Of a stretch of 64,000 nucleotides of DNA, positions 7,408-61,390 are shown one piece after another. This stretch comes from an uncultured Bacteroidales bacterium (GTDB taxonomy: Bacteria > Bacteroidota > Bacteroidia > Bacteroidales > UBA932): NCBI GenBank assembly GCA_946415475.1, contig CAMKSQ010000003.1:34964-98963 (forward strand). Direction: 5' to 3'. Within the stretch, counting starts at the first letter, position 1; every line of letters starts with the position of its first letter. A program made the position numbers and the translations under genes. Below the pieces are notes generated by a model that saw nothing but the letters and a program-made list of their open reading frames with translations, was not told where the DNA came from and did no database searches.

Positions 7408-7420
7408 TCCAGCCTGCCCC

Positions 7421-7620
7421 TTCTCATCCCGGACTTTCCTTCTCATCTCGGACTTGGCCATTCTCATCCCGGACTTGACTCGGGATCTCCTTCCCGTCAT
7501 GTCCAGCCCCGACTCTCCTCATCCCAGACTTGATCCTCCTCATCCCGGGCTTGATCCTCCTCATCCCGGGCTTGACTCGGGATCTCCTTCCCGTCATGTC
7601 CAGCCCCGACCGGGTATCTC
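7421..7620. repeat. 21-bp-period iterons (CTCCTCATCCCGGACTTGATC-type)
   Basis: Repeated TCATCCCGGxCTTGA(T/C)(C/T)C; two copies of ACTCGGGATCTCCTTCCCGTCATGTCCAGCCCCGAC. Confidence 0.8.
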
Positions 7621-7710
7621 TTTGCGCGAAGGTCCACCACATGGACCTTCCGTACACTTTTCCCCTGGATTCTTTGCGCGAAGGTCCACGCCCTGGACCT
7701 TCAGGACAAA

Positions 7711-7994: not shown

Positions 7995-8350
7995 TTAAAG
8001 CACACTCACCCTATCCTGGACTACCTCCAATGCCTCACCCTGTGCTTTAATTACTCTTTCTAACCCCGTTTAAAGCACACCCACTCCGCCCAGATCCACC
8101 TCCAGGGCAGCACCTTGTGCTTTAACTACCCTTTTAACACCCGGCTAAAGCACACCTGCCCTGTCCAGACCTACCTCCAAGACCCCATCCTGTGCTTTAA
8201 CTACCCTTTCTAACCCCGTTTAAAGCACACCCACTCCGTCCAGACCCACCTCCATGGCAGCACCTTGTGCTTTAACTACCCTTTTAACACCCGGCTAAAG
8301 CACACCTACCCCGTCCAGACCTACCTCCAATGCCTCGTGCTGTGCTTTAA
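7995..8350. repeat. Five-copy 75-bp-period palindromic repeat array
   Basis: 56-bp units (T)TAAAGCAC...GTGCTTTAA at 7995, 8070, 8145, 8220, 8295 (exact 75-bp period) with 19-bp spacers of two alternating types. Confidence 0.9.
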
Positions 8351-8588: not shown

Positions 8589-8630
8589 AAGACTGGTTGG
8601 TAAGTGCTTGATTCATAGTTAAATACAAAT

Positions 8631-8659
8631 AATCCTCGGCGCAAAAGGAGCCGAGGATT
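8631..8659. terminator. Hairpin, possible terminator of the alpha-2-macroglobulin-like gene
   Basis: AATCCTCGGC/GCCGAGGATT perfect 10-bp stem; no strong T-run. Confidence 0.5.
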
Positions 8660-8687
8660 ATATAGTAACCTATTGATGGCCAACGGG

Positions 8688-11600
8688 TTAGTTGCCAGTG
8701 ACCGTGAGGGCGGGACGGGAGGCGGAGTTGGCGCGGTAGTGGGGGGCGTAGAGGGACTCAATCTCCACCACGGGCGCCTGGAAGCGGCCCGCCTGCTGCA
8801 CGTAGAAGGTCTCGGAGATTTCCGTATTCTCCTCCGGATAGGAGTCAAAGTAATACTCTGTGCAGGCGGCTTTTACATTCCTGTAGCCCTGCGGGACAAA
8901 GCCCCAGACAAAACCGGCGCGGAGCGGGCGGATGAAACCGTAGCCCACATGGCCGGAGAGCTGATGCTCCGGCTGCAGGGCTGCCTCACGGCCGGCCGTC
9001 AACTTCACGAAACTGCGGTTTTCCCCGTTCCAAATCTTATAGGTGACCACAATCTTGTCGCCCACGGCCACCGGGTCGCCGGGCTTGAGTTCCACCTCAC
9101 TCCCCTCCTTGAAGAACTTCCGCTCCAACTTGAAGCCGTTTCCGGCGGCCTTCACGGCCTTGAACGGGGCCCGATACGTTCCGGACAGCGCCAGCACACG
9201 GGTGTTCATGACGGCTTGGGAGCCGTCCAGGATGGAGGTAATGGCGTCGATAAAAGCCGGTTCGGTGTCCCAGTGCTGGGTCTCCTTCTGCAGCATGAGC
9301 CAGAGGCGGATGCCGTCGGCGATGGCGGAAGGAGATACACTCGCTCCGCTCGGTATGACAGAAGAAGAGCCCGGTAGGACAGAAGAAGAGCTCGGTATGA
9401 CAGAAGAAGAGCCCGGTAGGACAGAAGAAGAGAGCAGATCGCACAGGAGGGCGTGGGCGTAGGCTTCGCTCTCCAGGAGGCCGCGCCAAGGCATGACGGC
9501 GTTGGGATAGTAGTAGCCGCCGGAAGGATGCGCTACAGCATATTCCACCAGCGACAGGAGGTCAGCCTGCATGGATTTCTCCAATTTGGCCTTGGTACCC
9601 AGCGAAACGCCCCAATCCTGCGCCAGGGCAATACCACCTTCCCGCTTCAGCAGGTTGCGGAGAGTAAGCAGCCGACGACTCTTGTTCAGGATTTGTCCCT
9701 CCAGGCCACGCCCGTCTTTCTTACCGGGCGTCAGATAGTCCTTGGCCCACTTGGTAAACGTTTTAAAACGTTTTTTATCCGTTTCCGATACGGGTTTTAC
9801 CTCGAAAGGAACGTTGGCGTAAAGGGCGCGCACATGCAGGTACTGGGCATCGGAAATGCCACCGCACCAATACGGACGCTCGGAGCCAAACTGATTGGCA
9901 TCCAGGTATTTCACGGCCGATGTCACCTCCGGCACCTCAAACCCACGGTCGCGGAGCTTGGCGATCCGCTCCAGGAGCACGGCGGTGATAACCGGCGAGG
10001 AATGCATGCCTTCGAACCAGCCGAAGCCACCGTCCGCGTTACGGCAGGCGAGGATCTTCTGAAGGAGGGATTTCTCGACTCCGCCTGCGGCTTCGCTCGA
10101 AATGACAACGCCCAGCCGGGAAGCGAGAAGGGAAACGTACCAGGCCTCGGAGAGGCTGAGAACATCCTTGCCCTGGGGCTCCACATGGGACGGGATGGCG
10201 TCACGGACCATGTCCAGCACGGTGATTTCGCGCAGGGAGGCCTCCGATGCCGGCATGTTCACAAAGCGGGAACGGAGGCCCTGCAGCAGCGCTTCCCGGT
10301 TCATACCGTCCAGCAGCACGGCCGAATGGGCCTCGGTAAGGGTTTGGGCAGCCGGGTACACGGGCACGGTCACCTGCACGGCGTCGGAGAATGCCTCTGC
10401 GCGGAAGATGGCTTTAAGAGATACACTCGCTTCGCTCGGTATGACAGAAGAAGAGCTCGGTATGACAGAAGAAGAGCTCGAAATGACAGAAGAGTCGGAG
10501 CCGGGAATGACGGGGGCGGTAATCCGGAAGCGATGGTTCACGCTGGCGCCGGGCTGCACGGTCACGGGCACCATCTGCGAACTCACGGGCTTACCAGGCT
10601 CGGAGAGCACCAGGACGATGGTTCCGGAAACCGGCTTATCGGTAATGCTGGACACGGTGACCGCCGCATCGTACACATCGCCCTCGTACAGGAACCGCGG
10701 TTCCAGCAGGCTCACTTTCACCGGAATCGACACCACCATCTCGTCCTCCACCGTCGCATTATGCATGGCCGCATCGTGCGCGTACGCCCGTACATAGAAG
10801 GTCGATAACTTATCGGAAGTCTTGAAGCTGAAATGCAGCGTCCCGTCGGCACCCGGCCGCAGATGCGGCTGGAAGGTCAGCGCACTGGCGAAGTCGCTGC
10901 GCACAGGCGCATCGTCCCCTCCACCACGTCCATAAGCCACGACATCGTCGCCATCAACAACAGCCTTGCTCTCGACCGCCTCGTCCATGGCAGCATATTC
11001 ATACTCGGCAGCATCGGCCATAGCCATGGGCGTTGCATTCATCATGTACTTCCCGCCGGTGCGCATCATAATGGGTCTGTGTCGATACGCCTCCCCCACC
11101 ACGCCGCAAACCGGCGTAATCCAAATCTGCGGTACACCATCGTCATAGATGCTCACCTCCGGCCATTCATTCTCCGCCACGGCATCCAGGCTCTTGTCCC
11201 AGGCCGCCACCAGCACCTCCGCATCGGCCGCCGTCTTGAGCGCAAACGTATAACGGGTGCCCGGATAGGCCTTGTCCTGGAAACGCGTAAACTCCAACGG
11301 CATCGTATAACGGTTCTTTTCGCGTCGATACTCCCGGTCGTAACTCACGGACGCACCATGCAGGAAATAGAACACCTGAAGGCGCACCACATCCGGCCAG
11401 TTCTTCTTATAGGCAAACGAAAGATTCTCCAGGGAGCCATCGGCAACTACAACTTCCTTACTCTCAAGGAGTTGCTCACCATTCCCATAGACCATCACCT
11501 GGGCATAAACAGTTCCTTCAGTCGTGCCGATACGGGCACGCACCGCTCCACCCTCAGCCACCGTCGTGGGACCCGGAATAAAGACGCGACGGGCCTGCGG

Positions 11601-13994
11601 CATGAGCACCTGCGACTCGGGAAGAATGCAGAAAACGGCGAAATCTTCCTCGTTCTCTACCTTCTTTCCGCTCTTGCTCTCCCCTTCTACCCGCGCGTGA
11701 ACCTTATAATATCCGCTGCCCGGCAGTTCCACGGAGAAGCTGTTGCCGGACTGCACCTGCCCGGAAGCCAGCGTGCTGCCATCGGCGGTAAATACTTGAA
11801 AACCAACCGGAAGCGGCACCACATTGCCATCCTCATCCAGCGCCTTCAGCGTCATGCGTAGGGTGCTTTGCAGAAGGGTATAAGCGGGAGTGTACCGCCA
11901 GTCATCCTGGTCACGGAAGGCCTCCAGCTCCACAGAAGCGGCATCGGCAACAGAAGCGTCGATTTCCACATCGTCACCCACGTAATATCCCTTGCCGAAA
12001 CTGCGGGTTTCCCCGGTGAAATCTGTCACCGTAACCGTAGCATGGTAGTACCCCGTTTCCTTCGTGGGGAAGCTGAAATGGAAGTCGCTGTCGGCACCGA
12101 CCTCCTGCGTTTCCTCCAGCACGATGTCACCATAGCGCTCTACCTTCACGTTAACGCGTGCACCGGCAAGACTGTGTCCGGAATAGCTTTGCAGACGGCC
12201 GCTCACAGGGATGCTGTCGCCAGGCATATAGAATTCCTCCAACTGATTGAACTCCAGTTCATAGGTGGGCAGGACGAATTCATCGACCGGGAAAGAATCA
12301 TAACCCATTTCATCCACCTCCAGCGCAAAATCGCCGTTGCGAAGGCCCTTGGGCAGCACGAACTGGCCCGATGCCGCGCCCCATGCGTTGGTGGTAAGTT
12401 CTTGACTGGCAAGCCGATTGCCCTCGGAGTCCAGCAGCTTCACCTCAATGGAGCGGCCTTTGCACACGGCAAGGCTCTGCGCCGGGTTCCCTTCGAACAC
12501 CACCGCCTTGTAACGGACCGTATCGCCGGGATGATAAGCGCCCTGATCCTTATAGAGATAGCACTGCGTGGAACTATTATTCGAGCGTTCCACGCGAGGC
12601 TTCCGCATGCTTACCGGACGCGATTTCCGGTCTCCGCTCACCGCGATAAGCTCGTAATAGCTGTCCTTGTCCTTGAGCATGTCCTTAATAAAGGCCTCCG
12701 GCAAAACGGTGAAACCGCTGAGTTTCAGGGAGGTTTTGGCTACCTGGCGGCTGCCTTTCATCAGCAGCAGCGTTGCTTTGGAAAGCGGCTCGCCACTGTT
12801 GTAATCGGCCACATAAACGGCCGGACCGCGGCTGTCCGTGCGCGAGGCAATGGACAGCGTGTACTGAGTGTAGTTGGCCTGGTCGGTCAGTTTTCCGTTT
12901 ACGGCCTCCACCGTGTAGTCCCCGTCCGCCAGTTTGGGCAGGGCCACCACAAGTGTATCCGGCACGTAAAAAGTCTCCTTGGGATTCTTTAACTTCCAGG
13001 TTTTCAGGGACTTTTTGTCCTCCCGGAGCGTAACATTCACCTGCGAAAGATTGCGCAGCAACACCTGAATCTGCCCGTCCTTCACACTCACCTCCACATC
13101 GCTGGCCGTAAGGGTTGCTATAAGGGTCTCCGCCCCGCGAGAAGCATCGGCAATGGTGGCCTCCGAACCGGTATAGGCCTTGCGTTCTTTCTCCAACGTC
13201 CGGGCCGTATTGCAAAGCGAGGCATAAGCGCTGCCCGCTCCCTTCTTCTTATCCAGGTCCTCTTTCCGCATCTGCAGCAAAGCGGCCTTCGGGAACAGGG
13301 AAACGGCTTTCCCCTCGTATTTTTTTGCCACAAGCCCCAGGGCCTGCCGGCGTTCCTCCCGTTGCTCTTCCGGATAATAGTGCGAACTCACGGCGTAATA
13401 CTCCAAGGCCGCCTGCGAGGGATATCGACCCTCCACTTCTTCCAGAAGCGCCTTGTAAATATCATCTTTTTCCGAGACGGAGTGACTGGAAAGCATGCGC
13501 CAAAGGACAAATTCGCGGTCGTTGGCGATAAACAGCGGCAGGGTGCCGCCCAGGTACTCGTCCGCATCCTTGTAAAAGCCGCTTGTCCGGCCTTTGAACC
13601 CGTCCGGGTGGGCTTTTACATACTCCCAAAGCGCATCCGAAGAGGCATATTTCCATCGGCTCATCCATTGGAACGTGACGATGGGCTCGTTAAAGGAGGC
13701 CACCTCCGCTTCCAGGGCCTTGTTCAGGGCATCCCGCTGCTTCCAGTCCCGGCGCTGGACGGTGGTCACATACAGGGTGGCGGCATCGTAGAAATCCAAC
13801 GCCAGATGCTGCTGCAGGGCCTCCTGCTTGATTTGCGAGAGGATTTCCGCTTCCAGTTGCGGGCGATCCGCCTTCCGGGCGGCCTCGTATTTTTTCCAAA
13901 GGGAGGTTAGGCTGTGACCGTCATTCATGGGCTGCGCAATAGCAACGATGCCAGCCAACACGGCCAGCATACAGGTTAACCATATTTTCCTCAT
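8688..13994 (-). CDS. Alpha-2-macroglobulin family protein (large secreted, MG2/A2M domains)
   Basis: 1768 aa, signal peptide MRKIWLTCMLAVLAGIVAIAQ; 'YKDQGAYHPGDTVRYKAVVFEGN...', 'DGGFGWFEGMHSSPVITAVLLERIAKL'; contains in-frame genomic repeats. Confidence 0.85.
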   Translation of the reverse strand: MRKIWLTCMLAVLAGIVAIAQPMNDGHSLTSLWKKYEAARKADRPQLEAEILSQIKQEALQQHLALDFYDAATLYVTTVQRRDWKQRDALNKALEAEVASFNEPIVTFQWMSRWKYASSDALWEYVKAHPDGFKGRTSGFYKDADEYLGGTLPLFIANDREFVLWRMLSSHSVSEKDDIYKALLEEVEGRYPSQAALEYYAVSSHYYPEEQREERRQALGLVAKKYEGKAVSLFPKAALLQMRKEDLDKKKGAGSAYASLCNTARTLEKERKAYTGSEATIADASRGAETLIATLTASDVEVSVKDGQIQVLLRNLSQVNVTLREDKKSLKTWKLKNPKETFYVPDTLVVALPKLADGDYTVEAVNGKLTDQANYTQYTLSIASRTDSRGPAVYVADYNSGEPLSKATLLLMKGSRQVAKTSLKLSGFTVLPEAFIKDMLKDKDSYYELIAVSGDRKSRPVSMRKPRVERSNNSSTQCYLYKDQGAYHPGDTVRYKAVVFEGNPAQSLAVCKGRSIEVKLLDSEGNRLASQELTTNAWGAASGQFVLPKGLRNGDFALEVDEMGYDSFPVDEFVLPTYELEFNQLEEFYMPGDSIPVSGRLQSYSGHSLAGARVNVKVERYGDIVLEETQEVGADSDFHFSFPTKETGYYHATVTVTDFTGETRSFGKGYYVGDDVEIDASVADAASVELEAFRDQDDWRYTPAYTLLQSTLRMTLKALDEDGNVVPLPVGFQVFTADGSTLASGQVQSGNSFSVELPGSGYYKVHARVEGESKSGKKVENEEDFAVFCILPESQVLMPQARRVFIPGPTTVAEGGAVRARIGTTEGTVYAQVMVYGNGEQLLESKEVVVADGSLENLSFAYKKNWPDVVRLQVFYFLHGASVSYDREYRREKNRYTMPLEFTRFQDKAYPGTRYTFALKTAADAEVLVAAWDKSLDAVAENEWPEVSIYDDGVPQIWITPVCGVVGEAYRHRPIMMRTGGKYMMNATPMAMADAAEYEYAAMDEAVESKAVVDGDDVVAYGRGGGDDAPVRSDFASALTFQPHLRPGADGTLHFSFKTSDKLSTFYVRAYAHDAAMHNATVEDEMVVSIPVKVSLLEPRFLYEGDVYDAAVTVSSITDKPVSGTIVLVLSEPGKPVSSQMVPVTVQPGASVNHRFRITAPVIPGSDSSVISSSSSVIPSSSSVIPSEASVSLKAIFRAEAFSDAVQVTVPVYPAAQTLTEAHSAVLLDGMNREALLQGLRSRFVNMPASEASLREITVLDMVRDAIPSHVEPQGKDVLSLSEAWYVSLLASRLGVVISSEAAGGVEKSLLQKILACRNADGGFGWFEGMHSSPVITAVLLERIAKLRDRGFEVPEVTSAVKYLDANQFGSERPYWCGGISDAQYLHVRALYANVPFEVKPVSETDKKRFKTFTKWAKDYLTPGKKDGRGLEGQILNKSRRLLTLRNLLKREGGIALAQDWGVSLGTKAKLEKSMQADLLSLVEYAVAHPSGGYYYPNAVMPWRGLLESEAYAHALLCDLLSSSVLPGSSSVIPSSSSVLPGSSSVIPSGASVSPSAIADGIRLWLMLQKETQHWDTEPAFIDAITSILDGSQAVMNTRVLALSGTYRAPFKAVKAAGNGFKLERKFFKEGSEVELKPGDPVAVGDKIVVTYKIWNGENRSFVKLTAGREAALQPEHQLSGHVGYGFIRPLRAGFVWGFVPQGYRNVKAACTEYYFDSYPEENTEISETFYVQQAGRFQAPVVEIESLYAPHYRANSASRPALTVTGN

Positions 13995-48682: not shown

Positions 48683-51600
48683 TTATTTGGCAGCGTAAGT
48701 CACTTTAAGGGAGACAATACGTACCTGATTGTCTGTAGCCGTAAAGGCAACTGAGCTGGAAGAACCTTCCCACACACCATCCTTATCATTATAAGAATAA
48801 CCTGCCGGTGCACCAGCGCCCCAGCAACCAGGGCCCTGTTTGGTAGTACCACTGGCCGTGCAGGTGAATTCAATCTTGGTAACCACGTAACCGGAAGCTG
48901 CGCTCACCGTAAAGGTTTGGCTCTTATAAATGCGTAATTCAGTTACCGCAGTACCGTTATAGTTGGAAGAGTTGGTGAAGGAAATCACATCATTCATGGC
49001 TACAGTTGCACCATTGTCGGCAGCAGCAGCTAACTGGCTCTTATCAAAAGAAACATTGTTTCCATCACCGCCACCGGGTTGGTCACCACCACCAGGCTCG
49101 TCACCGCCACCGGGTTCATCGCCACCACTAGAAGCAGTGGTAACACCGTTGAGGCTATATAGGTAGGCCTTGCCGCCTCCCTGGGTTTCGGCCGTGGTAT
49201 TGTACTTGGCCAGAGGTCCATAAAGAACCACCTCGTCTCCAACAGCCACCTCGGCATTGCCTTCCACCCACTTCTTGCCCTCCAGGTATTCGACCTGATA
49301 GGCCTCGAAGCTGGCGTCGCTGGTCGTACCGTCATCCGTGATGAAGAAGACTGCACGGTTGTTATTGGCTATAGCGTAGTTGTAGTTGATCTTCTGGACC
49401 TTACCCTTTACATAATACTTGGTTTCGCCAGTGTTGTTGTTACCCTCAATATTAGCCATTATCCAAGCATGGGCCTCACTGGCAGTAAAAGCAGTCTCAA
49501 GCGTAAGACCATCATTGCCAGCGGGCTCGTCACCGCCACCCTGACCATCCGTGTATTCAAGGATGGCTGCATCTACAACTTCATGCTGGCTCTTGTTTGC
49601 ATAATAGTCATACTTGCCAGCAATAGTGATGGTGCCTCCGTCCTTGATCTTGTTCTTCCACTCATCCGTCTTGTAGGCAGCAAGCACGCTATACACATAG
49701 ATGGTGCCCGATGCGTCCGTAAGGTCGAAGCTGCAATAAGTAGGATTGAACTTAGATACCGTACCGGTGAGCTTGTAGTACGTACTCTTGTCTGCAAGCT
49801 GGATGAATTCCGCAACAGTCTTAGACGCAGCGGTGCTATAGTCATCTCCGCCGCCTTCTCCATCCGTGTACTCAAGGATAGCGGCATCTACAACTTCATG
49901 CTGGCTCTTGTTTGCATAATATTCATACTTACCAGCAATAGTGATGGTGCCTCCGTCCTTGATCTTGTTCTTCCACTCATCCGTCTTGTAGGCAGCAAGC
50001 ACGCTATACACATAGATGGTGCCCGATGCGTCCGTAAGGTCGAAGCTGCAATAAGTAGGATTGAACTTAGATACCGTACCGGTGAGCTTGTAGTACGTAC
50101 TCTTGTCTGCAAGCTGGATGAATTCCGCAACAGTCTTAGACGCAGCGGTGCTATAGTCATCTCCGCCGCCTTCTCCATCCGTGTACTCAAGGATAGCGGC
50201 ATCTACAACTTCATGCTGGCTCTTGTTTGCATAATATTCATACTTACCAGCAATAGTGATGGTGCCTCCGTCCTTGATCTTGTTCTTCCACTCATCCGTC
50301 TTGTAGGCAGCAAGCACGCTATACACATAGATGGTGCCCGATGCGTCCGTAAGGTCGAAGCTGCAATAAGTAGGATTGAACTTAGATACCGTACCGGTGA
50401 GCTTGTAGTACGTACTCTTGTCTGCAAGCTGGATGAATTCCGCAACAGTCTTAGACGCAGCGGTGCTATAGTCATCTCCGCCGCCTTCTCCATCCGTGTA
50501 CTCAAGGATAGCGGCATCTACAACTTCATGCTGGCTCTTGTTTGCATAATATTCATACTTACCAGCAATAGTGATGGTGCCTCCGTCCTTGATCTTGTTC
50601 TTCCACTCATCCGTCTTGTAGGCAGCAAGCACGCTATACACATAGATGGTGCCCGATGCGTCCGTAAGGTCGAAGCTGCAATAAGTAGGATTGAACTTAG
50701 ATACCGTACCGGTGAGCTTGTAGTACGTACTCTTGTCTGCAAGCTGGATGAATTCCGCAACGGTCTTTGCCTCAGCTTTGCTGTAGTCTTCGTCGCCACC
50801 TTCACCATCCGAATATTCAAGGATGGCGGCGTTTACAACCTCATGTTGACTCTTGGCAGAATAATATTCGTACTTACCGGCAATGGTGATGGTGCCACCA
50901 TTCTTAATCTTGTTCTTCCATTCATCCGTCTTATATTCATCAAGTACGCTATAAACATAGATGGTACCGGATGCGTCCGTAAGATCGAAGCTGAAATAGT
51001 TAGAACTGAACTTGGAGACCTTACCGGTGAGTTTATAGTACGTACTCTCGTCTGCAAGCTCAATGAATTCCGCAACGGTCTTTGCCTCCGCTTTGGTATA
51101 GTCATCGTCGCCGGGCGCGCCGCCTTCGCTCTTTCCATTGAGACTATAGATGAAGCTGCCGCCCTTGCTCACGGTTTCAGGCGTGTTGCCCTTGAAGTTA
51201 ACCACCTTACCGCAGATAATCACTTCGTCGCCTTGTTTAACTTCGGTGTCGCCGCTCTTCCACTTACGGTTGCCCAGATAGTAAGTCTGGTATACATAGA
51301 AGCTTTCGCCGCCGTCTTCATCGACCACATAGAATGTTGCATTGCCATAGGTGCCGCTAGCCTCGAAGGTGGTGGACACCTCGGAGATCTTGCCCTCGAA
51401 GAAGATATTCTTCTCGCTGGCTTGATCGGCGGGGAGGGAACGGGTATACTCCAAGACTCCCGCTACGTTGAACGGATTCTCCAGGGTACCGTCGCCATTG
51501 TCGATCTCGCCTTCCGGACCTGCCTGCTCGATGGTGAGGGAGGCACGGGCAAAGCCGATGGTAAACACGATGGTGGCAGAACGGTTGTACTCGGTGTTCT

Positions 51601-59181: not shown

Positions 59182-59380
59182 ATATAAAAAAATTAGCCCC
59201 GGGCTATATGCGGAGGCTAAAAACACAAAACACTGATATGAAATGTTATTTTAGCATTTTTTAACGTGGTTGCAAGCAATCCAAATCTATCCACATATAT
59301 TTTGGGACCGCAAAGGTAATGCTTTATTTTGAATTTGCAAAAAGAATCTTCAATATGGGCCACTGCCCTCCCCCACTCCC

Positions 59381-59543
59381 CGTCATGCCCGGCTCTGCTC
59401 CTCCTCATCCCGGACTTGATTCCCCTCATCCCGGCCCTGCTCCTCCTCATCCCGGACTTGATCCTCCTCATCCCGGCTCTGCTCCTCCTCATCCCGGACT
59501 TGATCCGGGATCTCCTCCCCGTCACGCCCGGCTCCGACCGGGC
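59381..59543. repeat. 21-bp-period iterons (CTCCTCATCCCGGACTTGATC-type)
   Basis: About six 21-bp units alternating TCATCCCGGACTTGATC / TCATCCCGGCTCTGCTC. Confidence 0.85.
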
Positions 59544-59674
59544 TTAAAGCACACCTTCCATGCCCAGAGGCCCCTCTATGGCCTTGCCTTGTGCTTTAAC
59601 CACTCTTCCCGACCCCGCTTAAAGCACACCTTCCATGCCCAGAGGCCTCTCTATGGCCTTGCCTTGTGCTTTAA
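59544..59674. repeat. Two-copy 75-bp-period palindromic repeat
   Basis: TTAAAGCAC...GTGCTTTAA units 59544-59599 and 59619-59674; same 56+19 bp geometry as 7995-8350. Confidence 0.9.
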
Positions 59675-59734
59675 CCACCATGCCGGGTAAAACGGGTTGG
59701 TCGGTAAGTACTTATGAGTGAGCACTTTATAGGA

Positions 59735-61307: not shown

Positions 61308-61361
61308 GAGATCCCGGATCAAGTCCGGGATGAGGAGGATCAAGTCCGGGATGAGGAGGGC
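61308..61361. repeat. Palindromic ATCCCGGATCAAGTCCGGGAT repeats, inverted orientation
   Basis: Reverse complement of the TCATCCCGGACTTGATCC units at 7421-7620 and 59381-59543. Confidence 0.8.
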
Positions 61362-61390
61362 CGGGACCGGGAAATGGACCGTAGCGGGAA

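What the first reader, a model, noticed from the sequence alone, without database searches (positions are those of the whole stretch)
9331..9433. Genomic 21-bp iterons inserted in frame inside an alpha-2-macroglobulin-like gene (site 1)
Seen: GATACACTCGCTCCGCTCGGTATGACAG followed by four 21-bp units (cggtaKgacagaagaagagcY) encoding SSSVLPG-SSSVIPS-SSSVLPG-SSSVIPS-GASVS. The reverse-complement unit TCATACCGAGCTCTTCTTCTG aligns with the intergenic 21-bp units TCATCCCGGCTCTGCTCCTCC at 59381 and 7421 after one gap. Period 21 is a multiple of 3 and keeps the frame. Inference: a dispersed repeat has colonised a coding sequence, comparable to in-frame Rickettsia palindromic elements.
Basis: partly seen in the sequence, partly recalled or inferred. 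Interest (0 to 1): 0.72.

Follow-up and report, generated by a model that had tools for sequence, protein, structure and literature searches.

The report
Palindromic DNA repeats inside protein loops
A short mobile-type DNA repeat sits in frame in a floppy loop of a protease-trap-like protein of a ruminant-gut bacterium; related species carry different repeats of the same class in the same three loops, showing that such repeats repeatedly add short peptides to working proteins.

Summary
Window 9332-9431 is an in-frame segment of a 1768-aa alpha-2-macroglobulin-like gene. It is one copy of a dispersed 29-bp element (TGTCATACCGAGCGRAGCGAGTGTATCTC on the coding strand) plus head-to-tail copies of its first half with a TCTTCTTCT spacer (21-bp unit; a 42-bp pair duplicated exactly). 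The core has 34 genomic matches against 0 for a control pattern; the 21-bp unit itself occurs only in this gene, at two loops. Two close congeners (79-85% identical) have an empty site 1. Across 63 orthologues, hairpins of the form GTCAT-stem-loop-stem-ATC are enriched about ten-fold and cluster at three variable loops. Different species carry different arm sequences there, so colonisation was recurrent. AlphaFold2 places the inserts at sites 1 and 2 in low-confidence loops. In the same genome about half of 54 element copies lie inside recognisable genes (PolA, IF-2, MetRS, MutL, DnaX, A2M), nearly always in the VIPSEASVS-type frame when co-oriented. "Iteron" is wrong: the 21-bp unit is a local expansion of a half element. 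How the element moves is unknown. Known phenomenon, new lineage, unusually strong recurrence.

The parts
8688..13994 (-). Alpha-2-macroglobulin-like protein, 1768 aa (MG2, bait-region domain, A2M, bMG10; no CxEQ thioester motif)
   Evidence: ORF; Pfam; CxEQ search; best PDB fold matches are bacterial A2M
9332..9360 (-). Site 1: full element TGTCATACCGAGCGGAGCGAGTGTATCTC (reads VIPSGASVS)
9348..9431 (-). Site 1: four 21-bp half-element units with TCTTCTTCT spacer (42-bp pair duplicated exactly), encoding SSSVLPG-SSSVIPS x2
10067..10107 (-). Site 3: element of the TTTCGAG family (TGTCATTTCGAGCGAAGCCGCAGGCGGAGTCGAGAAATCCC), reads VVISSEAAGGVEKS
10418..10446 (-). Site 2: full element TGTCATACCGAGCGAAGCGAGTGTATCTC (VIPSEASVS)
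10434..10493 (-). Site 2: three 21-bp half-element units (SSVIS-SSSVIPS-SSSVIPS); overlaps the full element at 10418-10446
10494..10511 (-). Site 2: truncated element of another family (GTCATTCCCGGCTCCGAC, reads VIPGSD), complete in orthologue L073
7419..7610 (+). Intergenic sister-family array: TCATCCCGGACTTGA half-units ending in full hairpins
59377..59514 (+). Intergenic sister-family array ending in TCATCCCGGACTTGATCCGGGATCTC
61308..61372 (-). Third intergenic array of the sister family

Best explanation
Site 1 is a genomically dispersed CGTC-REP-like palindromic element that came to lie in frame in a surface loop between two helices of the helical (TED-like) domain of a bacterial alpha-2-macroglobulin-like protein. 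It then grew locally by frame-preserving (21/42-bp) tandem duplication of its first half plus a spacer. Such elements keep arriving in three permissive loops of this gene, and in loops and linkers of many other proteins in these genomes. They persist because the loop tolerates extra residues and because the element is open in most frames; the reading kept is usually a small, polar peptide (VIPSEASVS, VIPGSDRES, CHSERSEES). Shown: dispersed nature, in-frame location, empty site in relatives, recurrence with different families at the same loops, predicted disorder, frame bias. Inferred: insertion as a mobile element, slippage as the cause of the tandem units, near-neutrality maintained by purifying selection against bad frames and sites. 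Unknown: the enzyme that moves it.
For: 34 genomic matches vs 0 control; a more general hairpin pattern gives 51 vs 0. Three loops hold TACC-, TTCCCGG-, TTCT-, TGTT-, TGCC-, CCCC- and TTGCC-armed elements in different species: 30 sense and 10 antisense detector hits in 63 orthologues vs a codon-shuffle mean of 2.7 sense hits. Site occupancy is 15-29% vs 1.9% in random windows, with 7-17 parsimony changes of family per site. AlphaFold2: pLDDT below 50 at model residues 143-155 (site 2) and 502-519 (site 1), between strands or helices. 27 of 54 element places in this genome lie in Pfam-supported genes, and 18 of 19 co-oriented copies use one frame, P about 3e-8. In PolA the linker holds the element in this genome and G005, none in G037 (89% identical), and a different hairpin in G050.
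Against: No target-site duplication or clean single-step insertion boundary could be defined, because the loop itself diverges between relatives. The four RAYT transposases in the genome are flanked by other palindromes, not by this element. The TACC-family copy does not fold as a hairpin in the DNA model used. No strains of the same species were available, so unit-number change is seen only between species. Expression of the decorated proteins is not shown.
Confidence: 0.85

Rival explanations
1. The Ser/Val/Pro segment is an ordinary low-complexity linker that arose by simple tandem duplication within the gene and only resembles the genomic repeat.
For: The 21-bp unit with its spacer is private to this gene; the loops are among the most length-variable in the alignment.
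Against: The 29-bp cap is identical or one base away from copies in unrelated genes and intergenic sites; other species have full hairpins of other families at the same point.
Confidence: 0.05
2. Elements spread within the gene: one loop is seeded from the genome and the other loops are filled by short-range copying (template switching or gene conversion), so the gene is a local amplifier of REPs.
For: 3 of 5 genomic copies of the TGTTGAG type in G063 are in this gene; in G061 both exact TTCCCGG copies are in it; in G000 the TCTTCTTCT-spaced unit is shared by sites 1 and 2 and found nowhere else.
Against: Sharing of arms between loops of one gene is not significant in a label permutation (4 observed vs 2.1 expected, P=0.13); each genome's preferred family could explain it; cases were picked after seeing them.
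Confidence: 0.25
3. Adaptive loop diversification: the inserts are favoured because they change exposed loops of a protease-trap protein.
For: Three loops of the same protein are hit again and again, mostly in sense orientation and hydrophilic frames.
Against: The same happens in linkers of housekeeping proteins (PolA, IF-2, MetRS, MutL, DnaX), which points to tolerance rather than benefit; most distant orthologues have none.
Confidence: 0.1

Closest known systems
CGTC-tagged REPs (Di Nocera, De Gregorio and Rocco 2013, PMC3733652)
   Same: Unpaired C/TGTC tag, stem that begins with AT, three-base unpaired tail, several families per genome, reported in Bacteroidetes, some copies inside genes including DNA polymerase I; no dedicated transposase
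   Different: Tail here is mostly CTC rather than CCA; loops of 6 or more bases; the TACC family has only a short imperfect stem; same-direction half-element tandem arrays rather than head-to-head dimers; recurrent hits at three loops of one gene across many species
Rickettsia palindromic elements (RPE-4, RPE-6 as CGTC REPs; RPE-1)
   Same: Palindromic repeats inserted in frame in many unrelated proteins, at tolerated positions; RPE-bearing guanylate kinase is still active (reviewed in PMC2229807)
   Different: RPEs are 105-146 bp in that review; here one element adds about 10 residues and longer inserts come from local tandem growth; host is a gut Bacteroidales, not an intracellular alphaproteobacterium
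dRS3 of Neisseria
   Same: Named in PMC3733652 as a CGTC-1 REP, so the same general plan
   Different: Not compared by sequence here; no in-frame A2M decoration known to me

Membership tests
CGTC-tagged REP superfamily | Unpaired CGTC (or TGTC) tag at one end | tested here: met
   18 of 20 distinct arms tabulated have T or C before GTC, two have G; the detector itself requires GTC, so only the first base is a free test
CGTC-tagged REP superfamily | Stem of 8-9 bp starting with complementary AT | tested here: inconclusive
   TTCCCGG and CCCGGAC families fold with 8-bp stems starting AT; the TACC family at site 1 has a short imperfect stem
CGTC-tagged REP superfamily | Loop of 4-5 bases, short tail mostly CCA | tested here: not met
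   Loop of 6 in the TTCCCGG family (5 in CCCGGAC), tail mostly CTC/CTG/CCC; the paper calls CCA a majority consensus and notes other loop lengths
CGTC-tagged REP superfamily | No association with a RAYT gene | tested here: met
   Four Y1_Tnp genes near other palindromes
Rickettsia palindromic elements | In-frame insertion in many unrelated conserved proteins | tested here: met
   27 places in Pfam-supported ORFs
Rickettsia palindromic elements | Sequence relationship to RPE families | not tested
   No RPE sequence was compared; the link to RPE-4/RPE-6 rests on the shared tag reported in PMC3733652
REPs mobilised by RAYT (GTAG REPs) | GTAG tag and REPtron association | tested here: not met
   Tag is GTC, no REPtron with this element

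The most novel reading that the evidence does not exclude
The A2M gene of these Bacteroidales acts as a landing pad and local amplifier: REP-like elements seed one loop, are copied into the other two loops and expanded in frame, giving fast, repeat-driven diversification of exposed loops of a protease-trap protein.
Probability: 0.15. Interest if true: 0.8.

Novelty: new variant of a known kind. Interest (0 to 1): 0.55.

Why it matters
In-frame palindromic elements are best known from Rickettsia. Here the same process is caught in gut Bacteroidales with many sequenced relatives, with empty sites, different families at the same loops, and housekeeping enzymes decorated. That makes it a natural series for asking how repeats enter working proteins, which loops and reading frames tolerate them, and whether CGTC-type REPs, which have no known transposase, still move.

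Tried and rejected
RAYT as the mobiliser: four RAYT genes found, but each lies near unrelated palindromes, so no link. Strong hairpin for the site-1 element: not supported by DNA folding, although other families fold well. Within-gene homogenisation: suggestive cases, but permutation P=0.13, so not claimed. Exact target site or duplication: could not be defined from the available relatives. The idea that the 7421 and 59381 arrays are the same repeat with a gap was rejected in favour of a sister family with the same architecture. Literature searches for such inserts in Bacteroidales found no paper; the library holds open-access papers only.

Full report
What is there. The gene at 8688-13994 (minus strand) encodes a 1768-residue alpha-2-macroglobulin-like protein with MG2, bait-region, A2M and bMG10 domains and no CxEQ thioester motif. 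Residues 1521-1552 are SSSVLPG-SSSVIPS-SSSVLPG-SSSVIPSGASVS. On the coding strand the DNA is four 21-bp units, TCTTCTTCTGTC[C/A]TACCG[G/A]GC, followed by GGAGCGAGTGTATCTC. The last unit plus this tail forms a full 29-bp element, TGTCATACCGAGCGGAGCGAGTGTATCTC (9332-9360). A 42-bp pair of units is duplicated without any difference, so growth by 42 bp was probably recent and kept the frame.

The element is dispersed; the 21-bp unit is not. The core CTCCGCTCGGTATGAC has 34 matches with up to two mismatches in the 2.25-Mb genome, against none for the reversed pattern. A general hairpin pattern, GTCATNCCNRGC..GNATCTC, has 51 against 0. Copies laid side by side show a sharp consensus GAGATACACTCGCTTCGCTCGGTATGACA with unrelated flanks. 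The 21-bp unit with its TCTTCTTCT spacer is confined to this gene, at site 1 and site 2. Several other loci show the same plan with other spacers: one or more half elements, then a full one. The intergenic arrays at 7419-7610, 59377-59514 and 61308-61372 show this plan for a sister family, TCATCCCGGACTTGATCCGGGATCTC.

Three sites in one gene. Site 2 (10418-10511) holds a truncated TTCCCGG-family element followed by three half-units, the last of which is part of a full TACC element. Site 3 (10067-10107) holds a TTTCGAG-family element.

Orthologues. The A2M gene was found in 49 of 61 genomes searched in the genus and in 37 loci of ruminant-gut and other Bacteroidales, in part the same genomes. 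At site 1 the close relatives L048 and L074 (0.85 and 0.79 identity) read LLAKAGESAIADG, so the insert is absent. L073 (0.82) has one complete element of another family there (SVIPGSDRES). Site 2 has a single full TACC element in L048 and L074. A structural detector (GTCAT, at least three complementary pairs, ATC) finds 30 sense and 10 antisense hits in 63 distinct genes; codon-shuffled genes give a mean of 2.7 sense hits. Nearly all real hits fall at the three loops, which are among the six most length-variable segments. Occupancy is 10/61, 18/62 and 9/62 at sites 2, 3 and 1, against 1.9% for random windows of similar length. Parsimony needs 8, 17 and 7 changes of family; a few of these will be detector noise. 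Arms differ between species while pairing is kept: T-A, C-G, G-C and A-T all occur at the first free pair. Inner pairs not imposed by the detector are mostly either Watson-Crick or tandem G.A.

Structure. AlphaFold2 on residues 1030-1768 with 56 sequences gives mean pLDDT 83.8. The stretches below 50 are model residues 143-155 (site 2, between two strands), 502-519 (site 1, between helices 481-494 and 526-544) and 658-668. Site 3 lies in a short loop between helices 249-265 and 274-287. The best fold matches are bacterial alpha-2-macroglobulins.

Not only this gene. Of 54 distinct element places in this genome, I could put 27 inside Pfam-supported ORFs: DNA polymerase I, a GH3 glycosidase, a nucleotidyltransferase-phosphatase, IF-2 (two), ATP synthase subunit a (N-terminal), MetRS, a SpoU methylase, SufD, a GT2 glycosyltransferase, a TatD DNase, an LTD protein, a MacB/FtsX permease, an FGGY kinase, YfhO (two), an ABC-F ATPase, a GH88 enzyme, an MFS transporter, a ketoacyl synthase, DnaX, a hybrid kinase, a DsbD protein, MutL, EPSP synthase (C-terminal) and A2M (two). 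Counting A2M site 3, 18 of 19 co-oriented copies are read in the same frame (VIPSEASVS, VIPGSDRES), although other frames are open; one frame of three by chance gives P about 3e-8. Copies within one gene are not independent, so this is a guide only. In PolA the 5'-nuclease/exonuclease linker carries the element in this genome and in G005, has none in G037 (89% identical), and has a different hairpin in G050.

Mechanism. Shown: in-frame occupation of tolerant loops, empty sites, recurrence, frame bias. Inferred: arrival as a mobile palindrome, tandem growth by slippage at the hairpin, filtering by selection for small polar readings. The mover is unknown. The genome has four RAYT-type transposases, each near its own palindromes, none of this type. 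This agrees with the report that CGTC REPs lack a dedicated transposase (PMC3733652). Some genomes hold a striking share of a subfamily in this one gene (3 of 5 in G063, both exact copies in G061), but a label permutation for shared arms was not significant (P=0.13), so local copying is left as a hypothesis.

Relation to known systems. CGTC-tagged REPs have the same tag, AT-first stem and short tail, occur in Bacteroidetes, include R. conorii RPE-4 and RPE-6, and are known inside genes such as those for DNA polymerase I and the excinucleases. Different REPs at about the same site of Xanthomonas recB are a precedent for recurrence (PMC3733652). The families here differ in tail and loop, and the TACC family has a weak stem, so I file this as a variant of that kind. 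RPE-bearing guanylate kinase is reported active (PMC2229807), in line with near-neutral insertion.

Noticed in passing
L068, L069, L070, L071: Four RAYT-like Y1 transposase genes (about 320 aa), each near its own palindromic repeats (AAGGTCCA..TGGACCTT; AATCCTCGTTC..GAACGAGGATT; AGGGGC..GCCCCT; L071 hairpins with AAAATCACC and AAAAATCGTC).
   Followed up: partly
window 7626-7704 and 8629-8661: Copies of palindromes that resemble those near the RAYT genes of L068 (GGTCCA) and L069 (ATAATCCTCG); the second lies just 3' of the A2M gene.
   Followed up: partly
L040, L043 (site 3), L075 (site 1): A second, longer inverted-repeat element (core GCGTCGCTTCGCGACCCTGTACGGGCAAATG, arms differ but stay largely complementary) sits in frame in the same A2M loops.
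   Followed up: no
window 7996-8350 and 59534-59678: 75/150-bp tandem arrays containing TTAAAGCACACC.
   Followed up: no
window 49545-51082: 315-bp unit repeated 4.9 times at 95% matches.
   Followed up: no
L073 genome (G061) and L103 genome (G063): A large share of one REP subfamily's genomic copies lies in the A2M gene (both exact TTCCCGG copies in G061; 3 of 5 TGTTGAG copies in G063).
   Followed up: partly
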